A stretch of 64,000 bases of DNA, taken from NCBI GenBank assembly GCA_003168265.1, contig PMSV01000003.1:124001-188000 (forward strand), read 5' to 3'. Below, in pieces: positions 52,942 to 61,294 of this stretch (position 1 is the first letter of the stretch; each line of letters starts with the position of its first letter). The stretch comes from Chitinophagaceae bacterium (lineage in GTDB: Bacteria > Bacteroidota > Bacteroidia > Chitinophagales > Chitinophagaceae). Both the position numbers and the translations under genes were made by a program. The notes under the pieces were generated by a model. It ran no database searches. It saw only the letters and a list, made by a program, of their open reading frames with translations, and was not told the DNA's origin.

Positions 52942-53808
52942 ATGAATACTTTGGAGACTGAAAATTTAATAGAACACTGGGACATCGTAATTGGACAGAA
53001 GAGCTCTCTTTTTGAACTACATCTTGGAGAAGTATGGAGATACAGAGACCTGCTTTTGATGCTCGTAAAGAGAGATTTTGTAGCGACATATAAACAAACC
53101 ATATTGGGCCCTGTATGGTTCTTTATCCAGCCTTTATTGACGACAATTACCTATGTCATCATTTTCGGCAATATCGCAAAAATTTCAACAGATGGCCTGC
53201 CGATGATGTTATTTTATCTTTGTGGCATCACACTGTGGAATTATTTTTCTGAATGTTTAAATAAGACGGCTACAGTTTTTAAAGACAATGCTACCATTTT
53301 CGGCAAGGTGTATTTTCCACGGCTTATTATGCCATTGTCGATCGTAGTATCCAATTTGGTAAGGCTCGGCATTCAGTTTATTCTGTTTCTCCTGATCTGG
53401 GGCTGGTATTTGTATAAAGGTGCAAATGTGCACCCGAATTTCTATATACTGTTGTCGCCCTATATCATCCTGTTGCTGGCGATAATCGCATTAGGGACAG
53501 GTATGATTATTAGCGCCATGACTACAAAATACCGTGACCTGGTATTTCTGCTAACATTTGGCATACAGCTAATGATGTATGCAACTCCGGTGATTTATCC
53601 AATGAGTGTGTTAAGCAAAAAATATGCATTGCTAATCAAGGCCAATCCTTTGTCATCCCTTTTGGAAACATTCCGGTATTCCTTTACCGGCTCGGGCCAG
53701 TTCAGTTGGATATCCCTTGGTTACAGTACTGTATTTGCTGTTATTTTACTGTTCATTGGTACCGTCATATTTAACCGTGTTGAAAAGGATTTCATGGATA
53801 CCGTATAA
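52942..53808 (+). CDS. ABC-2 type polysaccharide export permease (Wzm-like)
   Basis: A 288-residue permease from the ATG at 52942 (MNTLETENLIEHWDIVIGQK); a TTG at 52894 overlapping wzc adds a less plausible front. Family marks: WRYRDLLLMLVKRDFVATYK followed by LGPVWFFIQPLLTTI (about 30-70), and near the end YPMSVLSKKYALLIKANPLS and LETFRYSFTG. Six helices. With the following ATPase it would carry a lipid-linked polysaccharide across the inner membrane. Confidence 0.92.
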   Translation: MNTLETENLIEHWDIVIGQKSSLFELHLGEVWRYRDLLLMLVKRDFVATYKQTILGPVWFFIQPLLTTITYVIIFGNIAKISTDGLPMMLFYLCGITLWNYFSECLNKTATVFKDNATIFGKVYFPRLIMPLSIVVSNLVRLGIQFILFLLIWGWYLYKGANVHPNFYILLSPYIILLLAIIALGTGMIISAMTTKYRDLVFLLTFGIQLMMYATPVIYPMSVLSKKYALLIKANPLSSLLETFRYSFTGSGQFSWISLGYSTVFAVILLFIGTVIFNRVEKDFMDTV

Positions 53809-53835: not shown

Positions 53836-55086
53836 ATGAGCGATGTAGTTATTAAGGTAGAGAATTTATCAAAGCAATATCGTTTAGGGGAAGTGGGAAC
53901 TGGGACCCTAAGCCATGACCTAAACCGCTGGTGGGCAAAGATTCGGGGTAAGGATGATCCTTTTTTGAAAATGGGCGAAACCAATGACCGCGAGCAAAAG
54001 GGAGCTACTGATTATGTTTGGGCCTTGCGCGATATTGATTTCGAAGTGATACATGGAGAAGTGCTTGGCATTATAGGTAAAAATGGAGCAGGCAAGTCGA
54101 CCCTTTTGAAAATACTATCGAAAACAACGAGCCCTACAATTGGCAAGATAAAAGCAAAAGGCAGGATTGCCAGCCTTTTGGAAGTAGGTACCGGGTTCCA
54201 TCCGGAGATGACTGGGAGGGAAAATATATTTCTTAATGGGGCTATTTTGGGCATGACCAGGAAAGAAATTAAAGCAAAATTTGACGAGATCTTGGATTTT
54301 TCAGGAGTTGAAAGATACGTTGATACGCCTGTAAAGCGCTACAGCAGCGGGATGTATGTGCGACTGGCATTTGCAGTTGCGGCTCATCTGGAACCTGAAA
54401 TATTAATAGTTGATGAGGTCCTGGCTGTCGGAGATGCAGAATTCCAGAAAAAATGCCTAGGCAAAATGAAAGATGTAAGTGTAAAGGAAGGCAGAACCGT
54501 GCTTTTTGTCAGTCACAATATGACAGCTATTAAAAGCCTTTGTTCACAAGTGATGTTGTTAAAAAATGGGGAGTTGTCCTTGATCGGAAATACCGATCAG
54601 GTCATGAATAATTACCAGTTATTGTTTTCTCCATCCTCAAGAGCGGAATTTGATCCTGACAGTAAAGTGACAGGTAATGAAAATATTCGATTGGATTCTG
54701 TAGAGCTTGAAAATAATGAGGAGGTTGGAAGATTTTGTATTAATGAACCGTTGACATTAAAGCTAAGCCTGACTAACCGGAAGGTGTTCTCGCCAATCAA
54801 TGTGAATATTTTTTTTAATCACCTCGATGGTACAAATATATTTGCTACTTGTTCTACGAAAAGGCAATTTGACATTGGGCCCATGAATCTAAAGTGCAGG
54901 ATACCTGCAAATTTCCTGAACGATAATATTTACAGCTTGAGCATAATGGTTGTAACTGAGTCAAATTCAATTTTGGATGTCAATGAGGCATTGGTTATTG
55001 AGGGCTTCGAACCTCCTAGAGAAGCTGGGTGGTTAGGCAAATTCCCAGGATATGTAAGGCCAAAATTTGAGTGGCAAGACTATTAA
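53836..55086 (+). CDS. ABC transporter ATPase with C-terminal glycan-binding domain (Wzt-like)
   Basis: A 416-residue ATPase. Walker A IIGKNGAGKSTLLK (about 80), Q-loop region SLLEVGTGFHPEMTGRENI, signature KRYSSGMYVRLAFA (about 168) and Walker B ILIVDEVLAVGDAEFQKK (about 190). Residues ~270-416 form a Wzt_C-like beta domain (NEPLTLKLSLTNRKVF and similar), which in Wzt proteins recognises the end of the O-chain. Sits 27 bp after the permease gene. The presence of this domain suggests export of a terminally marked polysaccharide. Confidence 0.93.
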   Translation: MSDVVIKVENLSKQYRLGEVGTGTLSHDLNRWWAKIRGKDDPFLKMGETNDREQKGATDYVWALRDIDFEVIHGEVLGIIGKNGAGKSTLLKILSKTTSPTIGKIKAKGRIASLLEVGTGFHPEMTGRENIFLNGAILGMTRKEIKAKFDEILDFSGVERYVDTPVKRYSSGMYVRLAFAVAAHLEPEILIVDEVLAVGDAEFQKKCLGKMKDVSVKEGRTVLFVSHNMTAIKSLCSQVMLLKNGELSLIGNTDQVMNNYQLLFSPSSRAEFDPDSKVTGNENIRLDSVELENNEEVGRFCINEPLTLKLSLTNRKVFSPINVNIFFNHLDGTNIFATCSTKRQFDIGPMNLKCRIPANFLNDNIYSLSIMVVTESNSILDVNEALVIEGFEPPREAGWLGKFPGYVRPKFEWQDY

Positions 55087-55098
55087 TATGTTAGTTGT

Positions 55099-56193
55099 AT
55101 GAACTTTACTGATGATGCATTAAAGACTATCCTCTCCTCACTTCCTAACAATTATAATGATAATTGGGATGATATCAGGTTCGGAAAACAGCAAAAAAGC
55201 ACACAAAACTTTTTGAAATCTAAAATTCAGAAACAGCTCAGAAAAAAAGGATATTACCACATCACAGCGATCCAGCATTTGCTTTCAAATGCGTTGCAAT
55301 TATACGAGTTTGAATATTTGTATGATCATTTGGAATTAATTGAAGATAAGAAGCTCTTATTGCAAGTACTTGCATATAGAATTTTAGGGTACAGAAAAGT
55401 CAAGTTGCCTCTTAACACTAGGGACTATAGGGAGAAATTAAAATTTGTAGAAAGCCTGGCGGATAAATCGGATTCCATTAACCCAAATTTTTTGCATTAT
55501 TTCCTATTTAAAATGGACCTAAGGAAGATTGGCTATCCTATTCAATTTTATTTTACAGTTGGTGGGGTGATGACCGGTTTTATAGTTAAGCAATATGAGT
55601 ATAATAAGAATGGAATATTGATCAAGGCTGTAAAAGACGATGTTGTAATTGATGGAGGAGGCTGTTGGGGGGATACGGCACTTTTTTTTGCCAATGAAGT
55701 TGGTGCAGGCGGAAAGGTCTTTAGTTTTGAATTTATTCCTAATAATATTAAAATATTTGAGAAAAATATTTCTTTAAATGAGGATTTAAAAGCAAGCGTA
55801 GAATTGGTCAGGTCGCCTCTATGGAATAATTCCACCACTAAAATCCATTTTAAAGATTTTGGACCTGGAAGCACTGTAAGTTTGAATGGTTTTTCTGGTT
55901 CTGATGGTGAATGTATTACGGTATCCATCGATGACATAGTGGCAAAAAGAGCTATTAACCGTATTGATTTTATCAAACTTGACATCGAAGGCGCCGAGAC
56001 CAGCGCATTACAGGGGGCTTCGCAAACTATAAAGAAATTTAAGCCTAAGTTAGCGGTAGCCCTATATCATGATCCTTCAGATTTTAAGCAAATTCCCCAG
56101 TTTCTGAAAAATTTAGTTCCTGAATATAAATTTTATTTTTCGCATGCAACGATACATGGAGAAGAAAGTATGTTGTTTGCCAAAGCAGATTAA
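55099..56193 (+). CDS. FkbM-family methyltransferase
   Basis: A 364-residue protein whose C-terminal half is an FkbM methyltransferase: motif I VVIDGGGCWGDTALFFANEV (about 185-204), FSFEFIPNNIKIFEKN, and the FkbM motif NRIDFIKLDIEGAETSALQG (about 290), ending PKLAVALYHDPSDF. The first ~170 residues are helical, with no match I know. It probably methylates a sugar of the polysaccharide, perhaps at the chain end. ATG follows the ATPase by 12 bp and the stop is directly followed by the next ATG. Confidence 0.85.
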   Translation: MNFTDDALKTILSSLPNNYNDNWDDIRFGKQQKSTQNFLKSKIQKQLRKKGYYHITAIQHLLSNALQLYEFEYLYDHLELIEDKKLLLQVLAYRILGYRKVKLPLNTRDYREKLKFVESLADKSDSINPNFLHYFLFKMDLRKIGYPIQFYFTVGGVMTGFIVKQYEYNKNGILIKAVKDDVVIDGGGCWGDTALFFANEVGAGGKVFSFEFIPNNIKIFEKNISLNEDLKASVELVRSPLWNNSTTKIHFKDFGPGSTVSLNGFSGSDGECITVSIDDIVAKRAINRIDFIKLDIEGAETSALQGASQTIKKFKPKLAVALYHDPSDFKQIPQFLKNLVPEYKFYFSHATIHGEESMLFAKAD

Positions 56194-57261
56194 ATGATCA
56201 ATGTCACAAAAACTTTCCTACCTCCAATTGATGACTATGTTTCAACTCTAAAAAGAGCCTGGGATAAGGCCTGGATCACTAATAACGGGGAATTGGCCCT
56301 TGAATTGGAAGAGAAATTAAAATCCTATTTGGGAGTCCGCAATCTTCTGTTTTGTGGAAACGGAACAATTGTGCTGCAAATGGCCTTGAAGGCATTTGAT
56401 ATCACAGGAGAGGTGATCACAACGCCTTTTTCTTATGTGGCAACCACCACAGCCATCCTGTGGGAAAATTGCAAGCCGGTCTTTGTGGATATTAATAAAA
56501 GTAATTTCTGTATAGATCCATCAAAAATAGAAGCGGCGATCACGACTAAAACTCAGGCTATTTTGGCTACTCATGTATATGGGTATCCATGTGATGTAAC
56601 CGAAATTGAAAGAATTGCAAGAAAGCATCAACTGAAAGTCATATATGATGGAGCGCATGCATTTGGTACAAAAATCAATGGCAGATCCCTTTTGGATTAT
56701 GGTGATATCAGCACATGCAGTTTTCATGCGACCAAATTATTCCATACAGTTGAGGGTGGTTGCATATTAACGCCCGATGATGAACTGCTCAAAAAGCTTT
56801 TTTTGTACAAGCATTTTGGACATATTGGGGATGAATATTTTTCCATTGGCATCAATGGGAAGAACTCGGAATTTCATGCTGCCATGGGCATTTGCAACCT
56901 GAATTATATTGGTGATATATTGGCGAAAAGAAAGAAAAGCTGGACCAATTATGCAAATGCTTTACGAAATGCCAGTTATGAGATTTTGAATATTCCTGAA
57001 ACGATCGAATATAATTACGCCTATTTCCCTTTTGTATTCGAATCTGAGAAAGAGCTATTGAGCAAAATGAATGTTTTTCAAAGAAAAGGCATTAAACCCA
57101 GAAGATATTTTTATCCTTCCTTAAACAGACTACCCTATTTCCTTGGTGAACCCTGTCCCAATTCCGAATCAATTGCCCAAAGAGTCGTTTGCCTTCCGCT
57201 ATTTCATGATATAACTGAACTGGAGCAGGATACGATCGTATCTGTTTTATTGGAAGGATAA
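56194..57261 (+). CDS. DegT/DnrJ/EryC1-family sugar aminotransferase
   Basis: A 355-residue PLP aminotransferase for nucleotide sugars. Family marks: WDKAWITNNGELALELEEKL, NLLFCGNGTIVLQMALKAFD, VITTPFSYVATTTAILWENC, VIYDGAHAFGTKINGRSLLD, the PLP Lys in STCSFHATKLFHTVEGGC (about 181), and GINGKNSEFHAAMG. It would make an amino sugar (for example a 3- or 4-amino-deoxyhexose). ATG starts right after the previous stop. Confidence 0.92.
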   Translation: MINVTKTFLPPIDDYVSTLKRAWDKAWITNNGELALELEEKLKSYLGVRNLLFCGNGTIVLQMALKAFDITGEVITTPFSYVATTTAILWENCKPVFVDINKSNFCIDPSKIEAAITTKTQAILATHVYGYPCDVTEIERIARKHQLKVIYDGAHAFGTKINGRSLLDYGDISTCSFHATKLFHTVEGGCILTPDDELLKKLFLYKHFGHIGDEYFSIGINGKNSEFHAAMGICNLNYIGDILAKRKKSWTNYANALRNASYEILNIPETIEYNYAYFPFVFESEKELLSKMNVFQRKGIKPRRYFYPSLNRLPYFLGEPCPNSESIAQRVVCLPLFHDITELEQDTIVSVLLEG

Positions 57262-57310: not shown

Positions 57311-58534
57311 ATGCTATTAACCAAAAAAAGATTGCTTTTTTTAGGCGGATCGGATATTCAAATTCCGGCAATAAGAAAAGCCCAGGAAATGGGGGCATAT
57401 GTGATGACTTGTGACTATCTTCCCGATAACCCAGGCCATAAAATAGCTGACGCTTATTATGATGTGAGCACTACGGATAAAGAAAAAGTGCTAGAACTGT
57501 CAAAATCTCTGAAAATTGACGGGATTTCTGCCTACGCGGCAGATCCTGCAGCCCTGACGGCTGCCTATGTTTCTGAGAAACTTGGTCTCCCCGGAAATTC
57601 TTTCGATTCCATTTTAAAGATTTCAGATAAGACAATATTCCGCAAATTACAGGTGGAATTGGGAATCAGGTGTCCGAAAATAATTGAATCTGCTGATCAC
57701 TCAGAAATTATCGAAGAGGTAGGAAAATTCAGACACGGAGCGATAATTAAACCGGTTGACACTTCAGGGAGCAAAGGGATTTACCGGATAACTGCTGATG
57801 AAAAGACAGAGGACCTCAAAACAAAAATCGAAGATGCTCTATCCTATTCAAGGGTGAAAAGAATTGTGGTTGAAGAATATATATTGAGAAAGGGATTTCT
57901 CATGTCAGGTGATTTTCTGATCAATAATGGAAGGATCGATTTTTATTGTTTTGGAGATGTTCATTTCAATGATACGATAACCGGGTTGGTGCCAAGGTCA
58001 ATTTCCCTTCCGGCGACCAATAACGATCCGAATATTTTTTCAAAGGCAATTAATGATCTCCAAAAAATGATTGATAGATTAAATATTCATACCGGGGTGT
58101 TTAATTGCGATATCATCGAGGATCAAGATGGACAACCCGTGATCATTGATATCGGAGCGAGGAATGGAGGAAATCTTTTCAACGATATAATTTCTTTACA
58201 TAAAGGAATTGACCTGATCGGGTTATCGATGATGCAAACGCTGGGTCTGCCCCTGAAAATTGAAATGGACGATAAGATATACGGATATTATGCTCACAAT
58301 GTGCTACACTCAACCAAAGATGGGATATTTGAAGGAATCGAGTTTGACCCGGAAATACGGGATCTCATTTTTTATAAGAATATTACAGTCACTAAGGGCG
58401 ATCGAATCCATCGTTTCGTAAATTCAGGCTATCGGATCGGTTTGATACTTCTTAAGTTCGAAGATTATTCCCAGATGCATAGAATCCTGGGAAATATTTA
58501 TGATTATGTTTTCGTTAATGTGAGTGGTTTCTAA
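57311..58534 (+). CDS. ATP-grasp ligase
   Basis: A 407-residue ATP-grasp enzyme from the ATG at 57311. The pre-ATP-grasp domain is LLFLGGSDIQIPAIRKAQEM with VMTCDYLPDNPGHKIAD. The central domain has GAIIKPVDTSGSKGIYRI (ATP-binding Lys, glycine-rich loop), VEEYILRKGFLMSGDFLI, and metal ligands in IDIGARNGGNLFNDII (about 280-295). The type is nearest to carbamoyl-phosphate/biotin-carboxylase-like stand-alone ligases that couple amino acids. Immediately before a cysteine-synthase-like gene and a GHMP kinase gene; see findings for a proposed joint pathway. Confidence 0.87.
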   Translation: MLLTKKRLLFLGGSDIQIPAIRKAQEMGAYVMTCDYLPDNPGHKIADAYYDVSTTDKEKVLELSKSLKIDGISAYAADPAALTAAYVSEKLGLPGNSFDSILKISDKTIFRKLQVELGIRCPKIIESADHSEIIEEVGKFRHGAIIKPVDTSGSKGIYRITADEKTEDLKTKIEDALSYSRVKRIVVEEYILRKGFLMSGDFLINNGRIDFYCFGDVHFNDTITGLVPRSISLPATNNDPNIFSKAINDLQKMIDRLNIHTGVFNCDIIEDQDGQPVIIDIGARNGGNLFNDIISLHKGIDLIGLSMMQTLGLPLKIEMDDKIYGYYAHNVLHSTKDGIFEGIEFDPEIRDLIFYKNITVTKGDRIHRFVNSGYRIGLILLKFEDYSQMHRILGNIYDYVFVNVSGF

Positions 58535-58551
58535 TAAAACAAAATCAAAAA

Positions 58552-59451
58552 ATGATCGTAAAATCCATGACCGAACTGATTGGGAATACACCTTTGCTTA
58601 GAATCGAGCTCCCTGAATTCAAAAAGGTCAATTTTCATGTTAAACTGGAAAGCTTCAACCCTACCGGGAGTATCAAGGATCGGGCTTGCATATCCAATAT
58701 TAATTCGGCACTGGAAGCGGGTAAACTTGAAAAATCAAAAACAATACTAGATGCAAGCAGCGGAAATATGGCATGTGCGCTTGCATTTTTTGGAAAAATT
58801 ATGGGCTTTAAAGTAAAGGTGGTATGCAATACCAAGCTTACTGACGACAAAAAAAATTTTATTAAATATTTTGGAGCTGAATTGGATGTGATGGGAGAAA
58901 AGACAATTGAAGGTAATCAATACTGTAAGCAACTTGCTGAGACTCCTGAAGGGACGGAAAAATATTGTTTTCTTGACCAATTACACAATCCATCAAATCC
59001 CCGGGCGTCTTATGAAACCCTTGGCCCGGAGATACACAGAGACCTTCCAGATATCACCGCTGTTATTGGTTCCATGGGTTCGGGAGGTAGCATGTGCGGG
59101 GTGGCTCGCTATTTCAGGGAATTCAAGAAGGACACAAAAATCTATACTTCACAAGCTGCTTCCGGAACGAAAATTCCTGGAACAGGCTCCTTTGTTGATG
59201 GAGAATACATTACACCATTCATTAAGGAGCTGATGGAAAATTATCAGGATTCCTTTCTTGTCAGCCAGCAACAGGCAGAGGAAAGAACTAAACAATTGGC
59301 CATATCCGGAGTATATGCAGGATTCCAGGCCGGAGGCGTTCTTGAAGCCGCCTACCAGGCTATAGAAAAATACCAATTGTTAGGAGATATCGTCATGATT
59401 ATCGGAGATGCCGGCTGGAAAAATATGGATAAATTAAAAGCCATAATATAG
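58552..59451 (+). CDS. Cysteine synthase-like PLP enzyme
   Basis: A 299-residue fold-type II PLP enzyme (CysK/CBS/SbnA group). The PLP Lys is K42 in FNPTGSIKDRA. The substrate-binding loop is DASSGNMACALAFF (about 66-79), the phosphate loop VIGSMGSGGSMCGVARYF, and the end is VMIIGDAGWKNMDKL. CysK has TSGNTG where this has SSGNMA, so the substrate pocket differs. Beta-replacement on an activated Ser/Thr (acetyl- or phospho-) is expected from the family. Between the ATP-grasp gene (17 bp) and the GHMP kinase gene (5 bp). Confidence 0.9.
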   Translation: MIVKSMTELIGNTPLLRIELPEFKKVNFHVKLESFNPTGSIKDRACISNINSALEAGKLEKSKTILDASSGNMACALAFFGKIMGFKVKVVCNTKLTDDKKNFIKYFGAELDVMGEKTIEGNQYCKQLAETPEGTEKYCFLDQLHNPSNPRASYETLGPEIHRDLPDITAVIGSMGSGGSMCGVARYFREFKKDTKIYTSQAASGTKIPGTGSFVDGEYITPFIKELMENYQDSFLVSQQQAEERTKQLAISGVYAGFQAGGVLEAAYQAIEKYQLLGDIVMIIGDAGWKNMDKLKAII

Positions 59452-59456
59452 AGCAA

Positions 59457-60335
59457 ATGTTTGAGCGTAACATCCTAACCGGCTATGGAAAATCCCACGC
59501 AAGCTTCGGCGAACTACTACAGGGCAGGCTACCTACAGGCAAAGACTTTCTCGTAACACTCCCGATTGATTTATGGTCAATTTGTAATCTTACAGCCGTC
59601 AGAAGGACAGGCCCGCTGGTCATCAACTGCGAATACTATAAATCAAAAAAAGTGGCTGAAATGCTCCTCGATAAATTGGGGATCCTGGATAGTTACGAGA
59701 TCACTATATCCTTTAGCCGGAATATTCCAGTTGGGAAAGGGCTAAGTTCAAGTACTGCTGACATGCTTTCTACTATCAGGGCCCTTCAGGAAATCTTTGG
59801 CTTCCTTTTAAGAGAAAAGACGATATCTGAAATCTTTACATCCATTGAGCCTCATGACGGGCTAATGTTCAAATCCTGCGTGGTTTATGATCACCGCAAA
59901 GGGGAACTAATCATGGAATTGCTATATATCCCGGAATTCTGGGTCGTCGCCATAGATTTTGGCGGTGTGGTGGATACGGTGAGTTATAACAAGAACCTGC
60001 TCTTTACGGATTCCATCACCAGGCAATATGAGGAGCTGTTGCTCAAGCTTGAAAATTCTTTTAATCTGATGGATGATAAAATGATCGCAGAATGCGCATC
60101 TGAATCGACTTATATCCATCTGAGCATGCACAATAACGCCGAGCGCTTAAAAGTGTTTGAGGAGTGTAAACAATTCAATCCGATGGGGGTAATCAATACG
60201 CATAGTGGTACCTGCCTGGGATTGCTTTTTTCAAAAAAAATTGAAAAAGCAGAAATAATGAAGATTGCAGATTCAGTCAACAGTCATTTTCAATATCCTG
60301 TTTTTGTAACCAGCACCTTAAAACTCTTAATTTAA
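59457..60335 (+). CDS. GHMP kinase, PduX/L-threonine kinase-like
   Basis: A 292-residue GHMP-family kinase. The start SFGELLQGRLPTGKDFLVTL and PIDLWSICNL match the PduX-like group. The ATP loop is PVGKGLSSSTADMLSTIRAL (about 92-111), and GVINTHSGTCLGLLF near the end matches the PduX 'H-S-G-T' motif. PduX makes O-phospho-L-threonine for cobamide synthesis, but no cobamide gene is here. Serine or threonine is the likely substrate by family; actual substrate unknown. Starts 5 bp after the PLP enzyme. Confidence 0.82.
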   Translation: MFERNILTGYGKSHASFGELLQGRLPTGKDFLVTLPIDLWSICNLTAVRRTGPLVINCEYYKSKKVAEMLLDKLGILDSYEITISFSRNIPVGKGLSSSTADMLSTIRALQEIFGFLLREKTISEIFTSIEPHDGLMFKSCVVYDHRKGELIMELLYIPEFWVVAIDFGGVVDTVSYNKNLLFTDSITRQYEELLLKLENSFNLMDDKMIAECASESTYIHLSMHNNAERLKVFEECKQFNPMGVINTHSGTCLGLLFSKKIEKAEIMKIADSVNSHFQYPVFVTSTLKLLI

Positions 60336-60343
60336 ATTATATT

Positions 60344-61294
60344 ATGTTGCAATGGAAAGGAAAAGTATTAAAAGATTCATTTGGTAATACAATATCCGGG
60401 GAATGGCCAAATCTCATAGATTCAAACAATAATAAATTGGAAATCGATGAAAATGGAATATTGGGGAGAAAAATTGAAAATACCATTTCTTATGAATTTC
60501 ATCAGAAACATACAAAGGGGGCGTTTTTAAGAAAATTTGAAAAACAAAAATACCATCAGATCAACTGGGAAACGCCTTATTATAAAAAGATATTTGACAA
60601 ATATCTTGCAAATGTTGATCCAACAGAAAAAATTGCCATTGATTTTGGTTGTGGAGACGGGCGATTCACAGAATATCTTTTGTTGAAAGGATTTCAAAAA
60701 ATTGTTTGTGTTGATTTCGACTATAAATTATTGGTTTCATTATCAGAATTCGCAAAAGAAAACAGTTACGAAGATAATTTACTTTTAATTCATTCAGCCA
60801 TTGAGGACCTGCAACTGGTCCAGGGTTCCTTTGACCTGATATTAAGCATCAGGGTATTATATTACCTGAACGAAAAGTATGAGGAAGGTATAAAATTATT
60901 TTACGATTTACTGAAACAAGGCGGCCAATTAATTACCAGTGATCCGGATATGGAAGGCTTTATTTTACGTACAATGATCTTCGACTCTTTAGCCTACTCG
61001 TTGGATTCATTTGAAAAAAGACGGTTTAAGGAAGTGCAGAAGGATACAAATATGTGGTTCAGGATGTTTGATGAAAAGGAGATTGCGCAAATATTCAGCG
61101 AAAGCGGATTTATCATAGAAGAGCGTCATGGAATTAGTATGTTTCATAATCTTTTGCGGGTTCTTCAATTAAGGGGAATGATATCGGAACAGGAAATAGA
61201 ACAAAATGAGAAAAGAATTATTTCAATGTTCAATTATTTCGATGAGAATGGACGGTTATTTAAGGACCTAGTATGGAATTTGAGAAAACCTTAG
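60344..61294 (+). CDS. Class I SAM-dependent methyltransferase
   Basis: A 316-residue methyltransferase. Motif I is AIDFGCGDGRFTEYLLLKGF (about 98-117), followed by IVCVDFDYKLLVSL and SFDLILSIRVLYYLNEKYEE (post-I region, Methyltransf_11/25 type). The first ~85 residues form a separate strand-rich lead (LKDSFGNTISGEWPNLIDSN) with no match known to me. Substrate probably a glycan or the amino acid substituent. 8 bp after the kinase gene. Confidence 0.83.
   Translation: MLQWKGKVLKDSFGNTISGEWPNLIDSNNNKLEIDENGILGRKIENTISYEFHQKHTKGAFLRKFEKQKYHQINWETPYYKKIFDKYLANVDPTEKIAIDFGCGDGRFTEYLLLKGFQKIVCVDFDYKLLVSLSEFAKENSYEDNLLLIHSAIEDLQLVQGSFDLILSIRVLYYLNEKYEEGIKLFYDLLKQGGQLITSDPDMEGFILRTMIFDSLAYSLDSFEKRRFKEVQKDTNMWFRMFDEKEIAQIFSESGFIIEERHGISMFHNLLRVLQLRGMISEQEIEQNEKRIISMFNYFDENGRLFKDLVWNLRKP

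What the first reader, a model, noticed from the sequence alone, without database searches (positions are those of the whole stretch)
57311..60335. Kinase + cysteine-synthase-like enzyme + ATP-grasp ligase inside a polysaccharide locus
Three adjacent genes, 5-17 bp apart, could form a pathway. A PduX-like GHMP kinase would phosphorylate Ser or Thr. A fold-type II PLP enzyme with an altered substrate loop (SSGNMA instead of TSGNTG) would replace the phosphate at the beta-carbon. An ATP-grasp ligase would attach the product. The SbnA enzyme of staphyloferrin B is a precedent: it uses O-phosphoserine on the way to 2,3-diaminopropionate. The flanking genes are glycosyltransferases, an aminotransferase and methyltransferases, so the product may decorate the glycan, for example as an amide on an amino sugar made by the DegT enzyme. 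I know of no described system with this exact set.
Basis: partly seen in the sequence, partly recalled or inferred. Interest (0 to 1): 0.68.

Follow-up and report, generated by a model that had tools for sequence, protein, structure and literature searches.

The report
Amino-acid decoration genes in glycan locus
Three neighbouring genes in a Bacteroidota bacterium look like a small assembly line that activates serine or threonine, swaps part of it for another group and probably attaches the product to a surface sugar; similar toolkits are common beside peptide-making genes, but here one appears, slightly rebuilt, in a sugar-coat locus.

Summary
In detail: ATP-grasp ligase 57311-58534, PLP beta-replacement enzyme (PALP) 58552-59451 and GHMP kinase 59457-60335, 17 and 5 bases apart, in a Wzm/Wzt-type polysaccharide locus. 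The PALP carries SSGNMA. One other genome, same genus, keeps the run from Wzm to GT2; kinase (80%) and PALP (74%) are the best conserved of nine genes compared.
Kinase-linked PALPs have altered loops like the window's (M/L/F/Y for Thr in 57 of 59; GSGGSxCG in 39 of 58); 30 CysM/CysK-type controls do not.
So the set is not unique to this locus, though no paper describing it turned up in ten searches. What differs is the glycan setting and the missing argininosuccinate-lyase-like partner: 45 of 46 other triples have it, 0 of 3 sugar-locus triples. Substrate, nucleophile and target are inferred. New variant of a known kind.

The parts
52942..53808 (+). Wzm-type polysaccharide ABC exporter, membrane part (first ATG 52942; frame open from TTG 52894)
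   Evidence: frame; compared from 52921 with its G018 counterpart, 58% identical; name assigned by eye, not scanned against families
53836..55086 (+). Wzt-type polysaccharide ABC exporter ATPase with C-terminal domain
   Evidence: ABC_tran above cut-off, Wzt_C 22.8 bits below its 30.4 cut-off; teichoic acid/galactan export ATPases best NCBIfam hits, below cut-off
55099..56193 (+). FkbM-family methyltransferase
   Evidence: PF05050 and TIGR01444 above cut-off; G018 counterpart 44%
56194..57261 (+). DegT/DnrJ/EryC1 sugar aminotransferase, expected to make the amino sugar
   Evidence: PF01041 282.9 bits; best NCBIfam DesI 235 of 650
57311..58534 (+). ATP-grasp carboxylate-amine ligase
   Evidence: ATP-grasp_3 over cut-off, LAL_C2 under it; PDB 4dim and L-amino acid ligase 3vot; relatives 35-37% in polysaccharide loci
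58552..59451 (+). fold-type II PLP beta-replacement enzyme, loops SSGNMA (69-74) and GSGGSMCG (176-183), Lys42 in NPTGSIKDR
59457..60335 (+). GHMP kinase of the PduX (free threonine kinase) kind
60344..61294 (+). SAM-dependent methyltransferase, conserved with the three genes in G018 (64%)
   Evidence: Methyltransf_11 52.9 bits
61331..62302 (+). GT2 glycosyltransferase
   Evidence: PF00535; 43% in G018

Best explanation
A phospho-amino-acid route has been recruited into a surface-polysaccharide locus. (1) The PduX-like kinase phosphorylates the side-chain hydroxyl of free L-threonine or L-serine (inferred from homology and context). (2) The PALP forms the aminoacrylate/aminocrotonate, phosphate leaves, and a nucleophile adds at the beta-carbon (fold and loops shown, reaction inferred). 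The likeliest incoming group is nitrogen, giving 2,3-diaminobutyrate or 2,3-diaminopropionate or an N-substituted form. Unlike most relatives there is no lyase or SbnB to cleave an amino-acid adduct, so either ammonia is used directly or the adduct itself is kept. (3) The ATP-grasp ligase activates a carboxylate and makes an amide, probably to the amino sugar made by the DegT enzyme next to it (inferred). (4) The co-conserved methyltransferase may methylate the amino acid (inferred). The product would decorate an ABC-exported O-antigen-like glycan, possibly its terminal unit. My likelihoods: kinase feeds the PALP 0.75; nitrogen nucleophile 0.4; product ends on the glycan 0.5.
For: Kinase-PALP linkage: 65 of 80 kinase loci have a PALP within 9.5 kb, 42 of 80 with the matched parts under 700 bases apart, against 6 PALP genes in the 4.30 Mb of the window's genome, i.e. 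about 0.03 per 19 kb. Kinase + PALP + ATP-grasp in 49 of 80; 20 PALP-ATP-grasp fusion frames (layout checked for 8, Pfam for 2). Loops: kinase-locus PALPs have M, L, F or Y in the place of the CysM threonine in 57 of 59 (56 of 58 without L074, the G018 copy); of 31 controls 29 read TSGNTG, one has no motif and one is the window's own. GSGGSxCG (strict SGGS.CG) in 39 of 58 kinase-locus PALPs (13 of the 58 gave no match to the loop pattern at all) and 0 of 30 controls; window and G018 have both loops; 25 of 58 have both in the forms SSG[NT][ML]A and SGGSx[CS]G. L075 carries NRPS - kinase - SbnA (408.5 bits, cut-off 350) - SbnB-like (310.7, cut-off 326.9). Azospirillum plasmid: kinase - PALP - ATP-grasp - transporter - ArgH-like. 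Glycan side: two more sugar loci, in a Hyphomicrobiaceae and a Nitrospirales MAG, hold methyltransferase-like - kinase - threonine/cysteate-synthase-like PALP - GNAT - NeuB/PseI-like - ATP-grasp-like genes. In C. difficile an ATP-grasp gene in the same cluster as an FdtB-like aminotransferase is needed for an amino-acid-bearing Fuc3N cap (PMC5207246 section 7 and passages, PMC5207245 passages).
Against: No enzyme was assayed and no glycan is known. The tree sets the window's PALP outside the kinase-linked clade (95/95), nearest by path to CysM rows, with long branches, so the shared loops may be convergence. Of three SbnA phosphoserine contacts (R132, Y152, S185, recalled) only R132 has a like residue (K126; R in G018), the others are L144 and G176; the Mtb CysM R220 (recalled) position is G212 (read off). 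The lyase present in 45 of 46 other triples is missing and the genome's three PF00206 genes are all on other contigs; no SbnB reaches its cut-off. The window ATP-grasp is closer to polysaccharide ligases (35-37%) than to the kinase-linked ones of rhizobia and Streptomyces (23-29% in the three matches better than 1e-5). Only one other genome shows the exact cassette. The two other sugar-locus PALPs (L080, L084) read SSGNT, so the M signature is not universal, and the ATP-grasp label of L080 is weak (no Pfam family; best NCBIfam 39.1 of 218 bits). The printed diaminobutyrate precedent I saw does not mention a kinase.
Confidence: 0.5

Rival explanations
1. The PALP is an ordinary cysteine synthase (CysM/OASS) that happens to sit in the locus.
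For: Best solved relatives are CysM (2jc3, 1.5e-38; VIA Z 37.0, rmsd 2.2, 289 residues for 2v03); NCBIfam best hit cysKM 182 bits; nearest rows by path in the tree, after G018, are CysM.
Against: 182 of 344 bits needed for cysKM, 170 of 394 for cysM; TSGNTG and GTTGT loops replaced by SSGNMA and GSGGSMCG; found in 2 of 33 genus genomes; beside the kinase in both genomes that have it.
Confidence: 0.1
2. The nucleophile is sulfite: the pathway makes cysteate (or methyl-cysteate) from the phospho-amino acid, and the ATP-grasp enzyme attaches a sulfonated amino acid to the sugar.
For: The sugar-locus PALP of L080 has a cysteate synthase model as its best NCBIfam hit (TIGR03844, 116.5 of 324.9, threonine synthase next at 111.5); a taurine-Ala-Gly cap on Fuc3N is known in C. 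difficile flagellin (PMC5207245 passages); no lyase or SbnB is needed for sulfite.
Against: The window PALP scores 115 of 600 for the cysteate synthase CapA, lower than cysM, cysK or SbnA, and its loops match those of the kinase-linked PALPs of peptide clusters; no sulfite-supplying gene was seen by eye among the frames listed for the locus.
Confidence: 0.15
3. The kinase makes O-phosphothreonine (or N-methyl-phosphothreonine) for a phosphodiester-linked glycan decoration, as in C. difficile type A flagellin; the PALP serves something else.
For: A methyltransferase follows the kinase in both genomes; the related kinase of G577/L099 sits in a glycan locus with a CobD/HisC-like aminotransferase and a HAD-like protein and no PALP found; type A flagellin carries methylated threonine through a phosphodiester (PMC5207246 introduction passage). 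A sugar nucleotidyltransferase-like gene lies further downstream (L157 11626-12396, by eye).
Against: None of the nine scanned proteins between 53.8 and 63.5 kb is a cytidylyltransferase or CDP-alcohol type transferase; kinase and PALP are 5 bases apart here and linked in 65 of 80 loci.
Confidence: 0.1
4. The amino group of a nucleotide amino sugar, or of another amino acid, is itself the PALP nucleophile, so the enzyme forms an N-alkyl (secondary amine) link and the ATP-grasp ligase adds a further amino acid.
For: No adduct-cleaving lyase in the three sugar-locus triples against 45 of 46 others; in C. difficile the Ala nitrogen of the cap is alkylated (PMC5207245 passage).
Against: No PALP known to me accepts a sugar amine; nothing here tests substrate size.
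Confidence: 0.12

Closest known systems
Kinase + PALP + ArgH-like lyase + ATP-grasp clusters, many beside NRPS genes (probably 2,3-diaminobutyrate/diaminopropionate modules)
   Same: Same kinase family (30-37% identity for the 79 kept loci other than L074), PALPs with M/L/F/Y substrate loops and often GSGGSxCG, ATP-grasp of the L-amino-acid-ligase kind, linkage
   Different: No lyase, no NRPS; glycan locus; PALP outside their clade in the tree. That these clusters make 2,3-diamino acids is inferred from L075 (SbnA/SbnB-like) and from recall; the printed passages seen name a diaminobutyrate synthase and a proposed gene, not this gene set
Staphyloferrin B SbnA/SbnB
   Same: Fold-type II PLP beta-replacement giving a diamino acid (PMC3179956 passages; use of phosphoserine recalled); L075 shows a PduX-like kinase beside an SbnA
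   Different: SbnA score 140 of 350; no SbnB partner; two of three recalled phosphoserine contacts changed
C. difficile type B flagellin glycan genes CDR20291_0244-0247
   Same: ATP-grasp ligase in one cluster with a sugar aminotransferase in a glycan locus, needed for an amino-acid-bearing amide on an amino sugar (PMC5207246 section 7, passages)
   Different: No PduX-like kinase or PALP in the gene list of that section; an ornithine-cyclodeaminase-like and a FemAB-like protein instead
PduX, L-threonine kinase of cobalamin synthesis
   Same: Homologous over 86% of length; GHMP fold (window kinase model)
   Different: 27% identity; no cobalamin genes or CobD beside it
CysM, including the phosphoserine-dependent M. 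tuberculosis enzyme
   Same: Fold (Z 36-37), NPTGSIKDR and DAGWK segments shared with the Mtb enzyme
   Different: Both active-site loops; far below curated scores

Membership tests
PduX / free L-threonine kinase | GHMP kinase domain | tested here: met
   GHMP_kinases_N 45.4 bits, cut-off 22.3; model matches GHMP kinases, mevalonate kinase 6mdf Z 24.9, rmsd 2.7, 264 residues
PduX / free L-threonine kinase | homology to annotated PduX over most of its length | tested here: met
   Salmonella pduX 26.8-26.9% over 86%, E 1e-10; no PduX model appeared among the NCBIfam hits, even for a cobalamin-operon kinase
PduX / free L-threonine kinase | phosphorylates free L-threonine | not testable with these tools
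   needs an assay
PduX / free L-threonine kinase | cobalamin context (CobD, Cbi genes) | tested here: not met
   polysaccharide genes on both sides
CysK/CysM O-acetylserine sulfhydrylase | curated NCBIfam score | tested here: not met
   cysKM 182.3 of 344.15, cysM 170.4 of 394.2, cysK 148.2 of 350.95
CysK/CysM O-acetylserine sulfhydrylase | TSGNTG substrate loop | tested here: not met
   SSGNMA in window and G018; 29 of 31 controls TSGNTG
CysK/CysM O-acetylserine sulfhydrylase | fold-type II with PLP lysine in KDR | tested here: met
   K42-D43-R44 aligned with CysM; Z 37 to CysM
SbnA (2,3-diaminopropionate) | curated TIGR03945 score | tested here: not met
   140 of 349.95
SbnA (2,3-diaminopropionate) | SbnB dehydrogenase partner | tested here: not met
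   best own-genome match 30.6 of 326.9 bits, on another contig
SbnA (2,3-diaminopropionate) | phosphoserine contacts R132, Y152, S185 (recalled) | tested here: inconclusive
   K126 (R in G018), L144, G176 by alignment; places recalled, not from a call
kinase-linked PALP module | PduX-like kinase, PALP and ATP-grasp clustered | tested here: met
kinase-linked PALP module | altered substrate and phosphate loops | tested here: met
kinase-linked PALP module | ArgH-like lyase | tested here: not met
   none among the genes around the cassette; three PF00206 genes, all on other contigs
kinase-linked PALP module | PALP falls in the kinase-linked clade | tested here: inconclusive
   outside it at 95/95, but long branches
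cysteate synthase CapA | curated NF053679 score | tested here: not met
   115 of 600
L-amino acid ligase-like ATP-grasp | ATP-grasp domain | tested here: met
   ATP-grasp_3 24.9, cut-off 23.2
L-amino acid ligase-like ATP-grasp | LAL_C2 domain | tested here: inconclusive
   22.9 bits, cut-off 29.4

The most novel reading that the evidence does not exclude
Surface glycans of some bacteria carry a non-protein, beta-substituted amino acid (for example a 2,3-diamino acid, possibly N-methylated) as an amide cap. It is made by a lyase-free version of the phospho-threonine/serine replacement pathway that was moved into glycan loci at least twice, once with a CysM-like enzyme (Bacteroidota) and once with a threonine/cysteate-synthase-like one (Hyphomicrobiaceae, Nitrospirales).
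Probability: 0.3. Interest if true: 0.65.

Novelty: new variant of a known kind. Interest (0 to 1): 0.5.

Why it matters
If right, it adds a way to put non-protein amino acids on bacterial surface sugars, with the gene set to find more of them. It also gives a rule that can be tested: a PduX-like kinase beside a fold-type II PLP enzyme marks a phospho-amino-acid beta-replacement pathway, and two short loops in the PLP enzyme help to tell such enzymes from cysteine synthases, the name under which several are annotated now.

Tried and rejected
Ordinary cysteine synthase: held unlikely on scores, loops and context. A plain member of SbnA: rejected on score and missing partner. Structure comparison did not discriminate: all 50 listed PDB rows are of the OASS/CysM/cystathionine-beta-synthase kind (with O-ureidoserine, beta-cyanoalanine and S-methylcysteine synthases among them), Z 34.6-37.0 (Foldseek), and the model's C-terminal 11 residues and 213-218 are under pLDDT 50. 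SbnA is not among the 50 rows listed, which says nothing either way.

Wider distribution of the exact cassette: PALP in 196 relatives, only G018 close, the other listed matches at most 38%; kinase in 395 Bacteroidota, no other convincing match (21 weak ones of 19-29 bits); kinase in 394 family members, own plus G577 (G018 evidently not in that sample); PALP in 396 genomes of the order, own only; PALP in viral contigs, none. The one genome-contig scan asked for short exact patterns: 248 stretches, 141 relatives, best 80 kept, 61 not seen; records of the window's own genome may be left out. It is not exhaustive.

Class of the L080 genome, kinase of L080: 2 of 337 genomes at 1e-20, its own and one with a lyase-like gene beside it (read by eye). 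Plasmid search with the window PALP: the 20 rows listed are 31-34% identical and annotated as cysteine synthases, PLP enzymes or not at all; with the L080 PALP, the 15 rows listed are threonine synthases, one threonine/serine dehydratase, or unannotated. Phages: 4 Listeria records with a kinase at 25-26%.

Papers: no description of a kinase + PALP + ATP-grasp set, in a glycan locus or elsewhere, in the listings of searches (open-licence PMC only; most subscription papers are missing; only seven papers were opened, by passages or one section). PMC11857848 and PMC2922099 were looked at by passages and did not bear on it.

'Sugar locus' means two or more matches to sugar references taken from the window, L157 and L080, so other kinds of sugar locus among the 80 may have been missed. 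Many of the 80 are Streptomyces and close kin, not independent. One search counted PALPs by the best hit of a whole frame (59 in 58 loci), by domain (65 loci). Controls are 31 frames from L001-L006 and L009-L036, mostly CysM of relatives, so not a sample of all PALPs. The tree used 34 of the 59 kinase-locus PALPs (hand-picked to thin near-copies; L080 left out), 4 plasmid ones, 30 controls, window and G018. The modelling alignments A6 (10 rows) and A7 (12 rows) were hand-picked.


Full report
What is there. The window is contig C4 124001-188000 of a 4.30 Mb, 24-contig genome. From about 49 kb to the window's end lies a polysaccharide locus: export and tyrosine-kinase-like genes (by eye), Wzm/Wzt-type ABC exporter, FkbM methyltransferase, DegT aminotransferase, ATP-grasp (57311-58534), PALP (58552-59451), GHMP kinase (59457-60335), SAM methyltransferase (60344-61294), GT2, GT4 and a nucleotide-sugar dehydratase-like gene. 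Beyond the window it continues with genes I read, by eye, as FnlA/B/C-like, acyltransferase, HisH/HisF/N-sugar amidotransferase-like and glucose-1-phosphate cytidylyltransferase/CDP-glucose dehydratase-like.

Conservation. Among 196 related genomes only G018, same genus, has a close PALP (74%); the other listed hits are at most 38%. G018 keeps Wzm - Wzt - FkbM - DegT - ATP-grasp - PALP - kinase - methyltransferase - GT2 in order. Protein identities: kinase 80, PALP 74, ATP-grasp 64, methyltransferase 64, DegT 59, Wzm and Wzt 58, FkbM 44, GT2 43; pN/pS 0.17 for the kinase and 0.22 for the PALP, the lowest of nine; synonymous sites are saturated. So the cassette is kept better than its surroundings. 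It is rare: 2 of 33 genomes of the genus, own genome only among 396 of the order, a sample evidently without G018.

The kinase. Its alignment with the kinase of a cobalamin operon that also holds CobD and CbiB genes (L064, 30%) and with Salmonella genes annotated pduX (27% over 86%) makes it a PduX homologue. PduX phosphorylates free L-threonine (passage of PMC6100177). No PduX model appeared among the NCBIfam hits even for the cobalamin-operon kinase, so membership rests on pairwise similarity. The model (pLDDT 88.8) is a GHMP kinase: mevalonate kinase Z 24.9, rmsd 2.7, 264 aligned; homoserine kinase Z 22.6, rmsd 2.8, 264 aligned.

The company such kinases keep. A scan of one genome per species gave 141 relatives, 80 kept. 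Within 9.5 kb, 65 of 80 have a PALP (42 of 80 with the matched parts under 700 bases apart), 50 an ATP-grasp enzyme, 46 an ArgH-like lyase, 50 an NRPS adenylation-type match, 1 an SbnB-like dehydrogenase; 49 have kinase, PALP and ATP-grasp together; 15 have no PALP found. Twenty loci have PALP and ATP-grasp in one open frame; eight were checked for layout and two by Pfam, which gives PALP, ATP-grasp_4 and LAL_C2. Plasmids show kinase, PALP and lyase/ATP-grasp genes in rhizobia and, cleanest, in Azospirillum: kinase - PALP - ATP-grasp - transporter - ArgH-like. Aminobacter has a kinase and a PALP overlapping, without a ligase in the table shown. L075 has NRPS - kinase - SbnA - SbnB-like. What I saw in print: SbnA/SbnB, and a 2,3-diaminobutyrate synthase said to act on threonine with ammonia in mureidomycin synthesis, no kinase mentioned (passages of PMC3179956); N-methyl-2,3-diaminobutyrate in mureidomycins and one gene proposed for it (passages of PMC4572928). 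That kinase-PALP-lyase clusters make 2,3-diamino acids is my inference from L075 and from recall.

The PALP. By score it belongs to no curated family it was held against: cysKM 182 of 344, cysM 170 of 394, SbnA 140 of 350, CapA 115 of 600. Its substrate loop is SSGNMA. Of 59 PALPs in 58 kinase loci, the residue in the place of the CysM threonine is M in 21 (one of them L074, the G018 copy), F in 17, Y in 12, L in 7, T in 2; of 31 controls 29 read TSGNTG, 1 has no motif, 1 is the window's own gene. The phosphate loop GSGGSMCG matches the strict form SGGS.CG in 39 of 58 kinase-locus PALPs (L074 set aside; 13 of the 58 gave no loop match) and 0 of 30 controls. Both loops are thus typical of the kinase-linked PALPs. 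Against simple descent, the tree keeps window and G018 outside the kinase-linked clade (95/95), nearest by path to CysM, though with long branches. I read this as convergence of a CysM-like enzyme, or an unresolved deep split. A bulky M/L/F/Y beside the reacting carbon would suit a threonine-derived methyl group; that is a guess. Recalled phosphoserine contacts of SbnA and Mtb CysM are mostly not kept.

What is different here. Of the 49 triples, 45 have the lyase; the four without are L074 (the G018 copy), L080, L084 and L120. Three of those four, L074, L080 and L084, are the triples that count as sugar loci (for the by-construction matches and the narrow definition of 'sugar locus' see Tried and rejected). 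L080 and L084 hold methyltransferase-like - kinase - PALP - GNAT - NeuB/PseI-like - ATP-grasp-like genes; the L080 PALP has a cysteate synthase model as best hit at 116.5 of 324.9 bits, its GNAT is nearest a dTDP-amino-sugar acyltransferase (79 of 219), its NeuB-like gene scores 316 of 400, and its ATP-grasp label is weak (39.1 of 218 bits, no Pfam family); of L084 no protein was scored against families, it is 43-61% like L080 in the two proteins compared. Their methyltransferases and ATP-grasp enzymes are not close to the window's. A fourth sugar locus, L099/G577, has the kinase with a CobD/HisC-like aminotransferase and no PALP found. So such kinases seem to have entered glycan loci more than once. 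L084 is cut by its contig end on one side.

The ATP-grasp enzyme. Its nearer relatives on plasmids are in polysaccharide loci, Brachyspira 37% and Bacteroides finegoldii 35%, the latter straight behind a DegT gene; weaker ones (27-28%) in an Aureibacter pseudaminic-acid locus and a Parabacteroides capsule-type locus. In C. difficile type B flagellin an ATP-grasp gene and an ornithine-cyclodeaminase-like gene, clustered with an FdtB-like aminotransferase gene, are needed for a terminal peptidyl-amido sugar, taurine-Ala-Gly on Fuc3N (PMC5207246 section 7 and passages; PMC5207245 passages). That is the best printed support for step 3.

Verdict. The genes are real, conserved as a unit, and best explained as phospho-Ser/Thr beta-replacement plus amide ligation feeding the glycan. 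Which amino acid, which nucleophile and which sugar are unknown. Known parts in a new setting with the lyase missing: a new variant of a known kind.

Noticed in passing
L099 / L065 9365-13270: A same-family MAG glycan locus has a related PduX-like kinase (36%) next to divergent genes for a CobD/HisC-like aminotransferase, a HAD-like protein and an ATP-grasp-like protein (the last two by eye), but no PALP found; perhaps an amino-alcohol phosphate decoration.
   Followed up: partly
L080 7850-15291 and L084 7623-14415: Sugar loci (NeuB/PseI-like gene scored in L080 only) with kinase, threonine/cysteate-synthase-like PALP, GNAT and ATP-grasp-like gene: an unrelated-looking parallel of the window's cassette.
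   Followed up: partly
L161 6962-12760 (Azospirillum plasmid); L060, L062, L063 (rhizobial plasmids): Compact kinase - PALP - ATP-grasp/lyase clusters with no NRPS in the gene tables shown; products unknown to me.
   Followed up: partly
L158 6160-7927 (Aminobacter plasmid): A two-gene kinase-PALP unit with overlapping genes and no ligase in the table shown, next to a divergent threonine synthase.
   Followed up: no
L163 3424-11479 (Vibrio tubiashii plasmid): PduX-like kinase with class I aminotransferase, glutamate-cysteine ligase family, SHMT and ATP-grasp genes: another unexplained amino-acid cluster.
   Followed up: no
L157 502-13975 (contig C4 187502-200975, downstream of the window): The locus continues with FnlA/B/C-like genes, a HisH/HisF/sugar-amidotransferase set (amidino sugars) and CDP-glucose dehydratase-like genes (all by eye), so the glycan is probably rich in unusual amino sugars.
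   Followed up: no
phages collection H71-H74: Four unannotated Listeria phage records carry a PduX-like kinase, close to a record end in each; possibly host DNA in the records.
   Followed up: no
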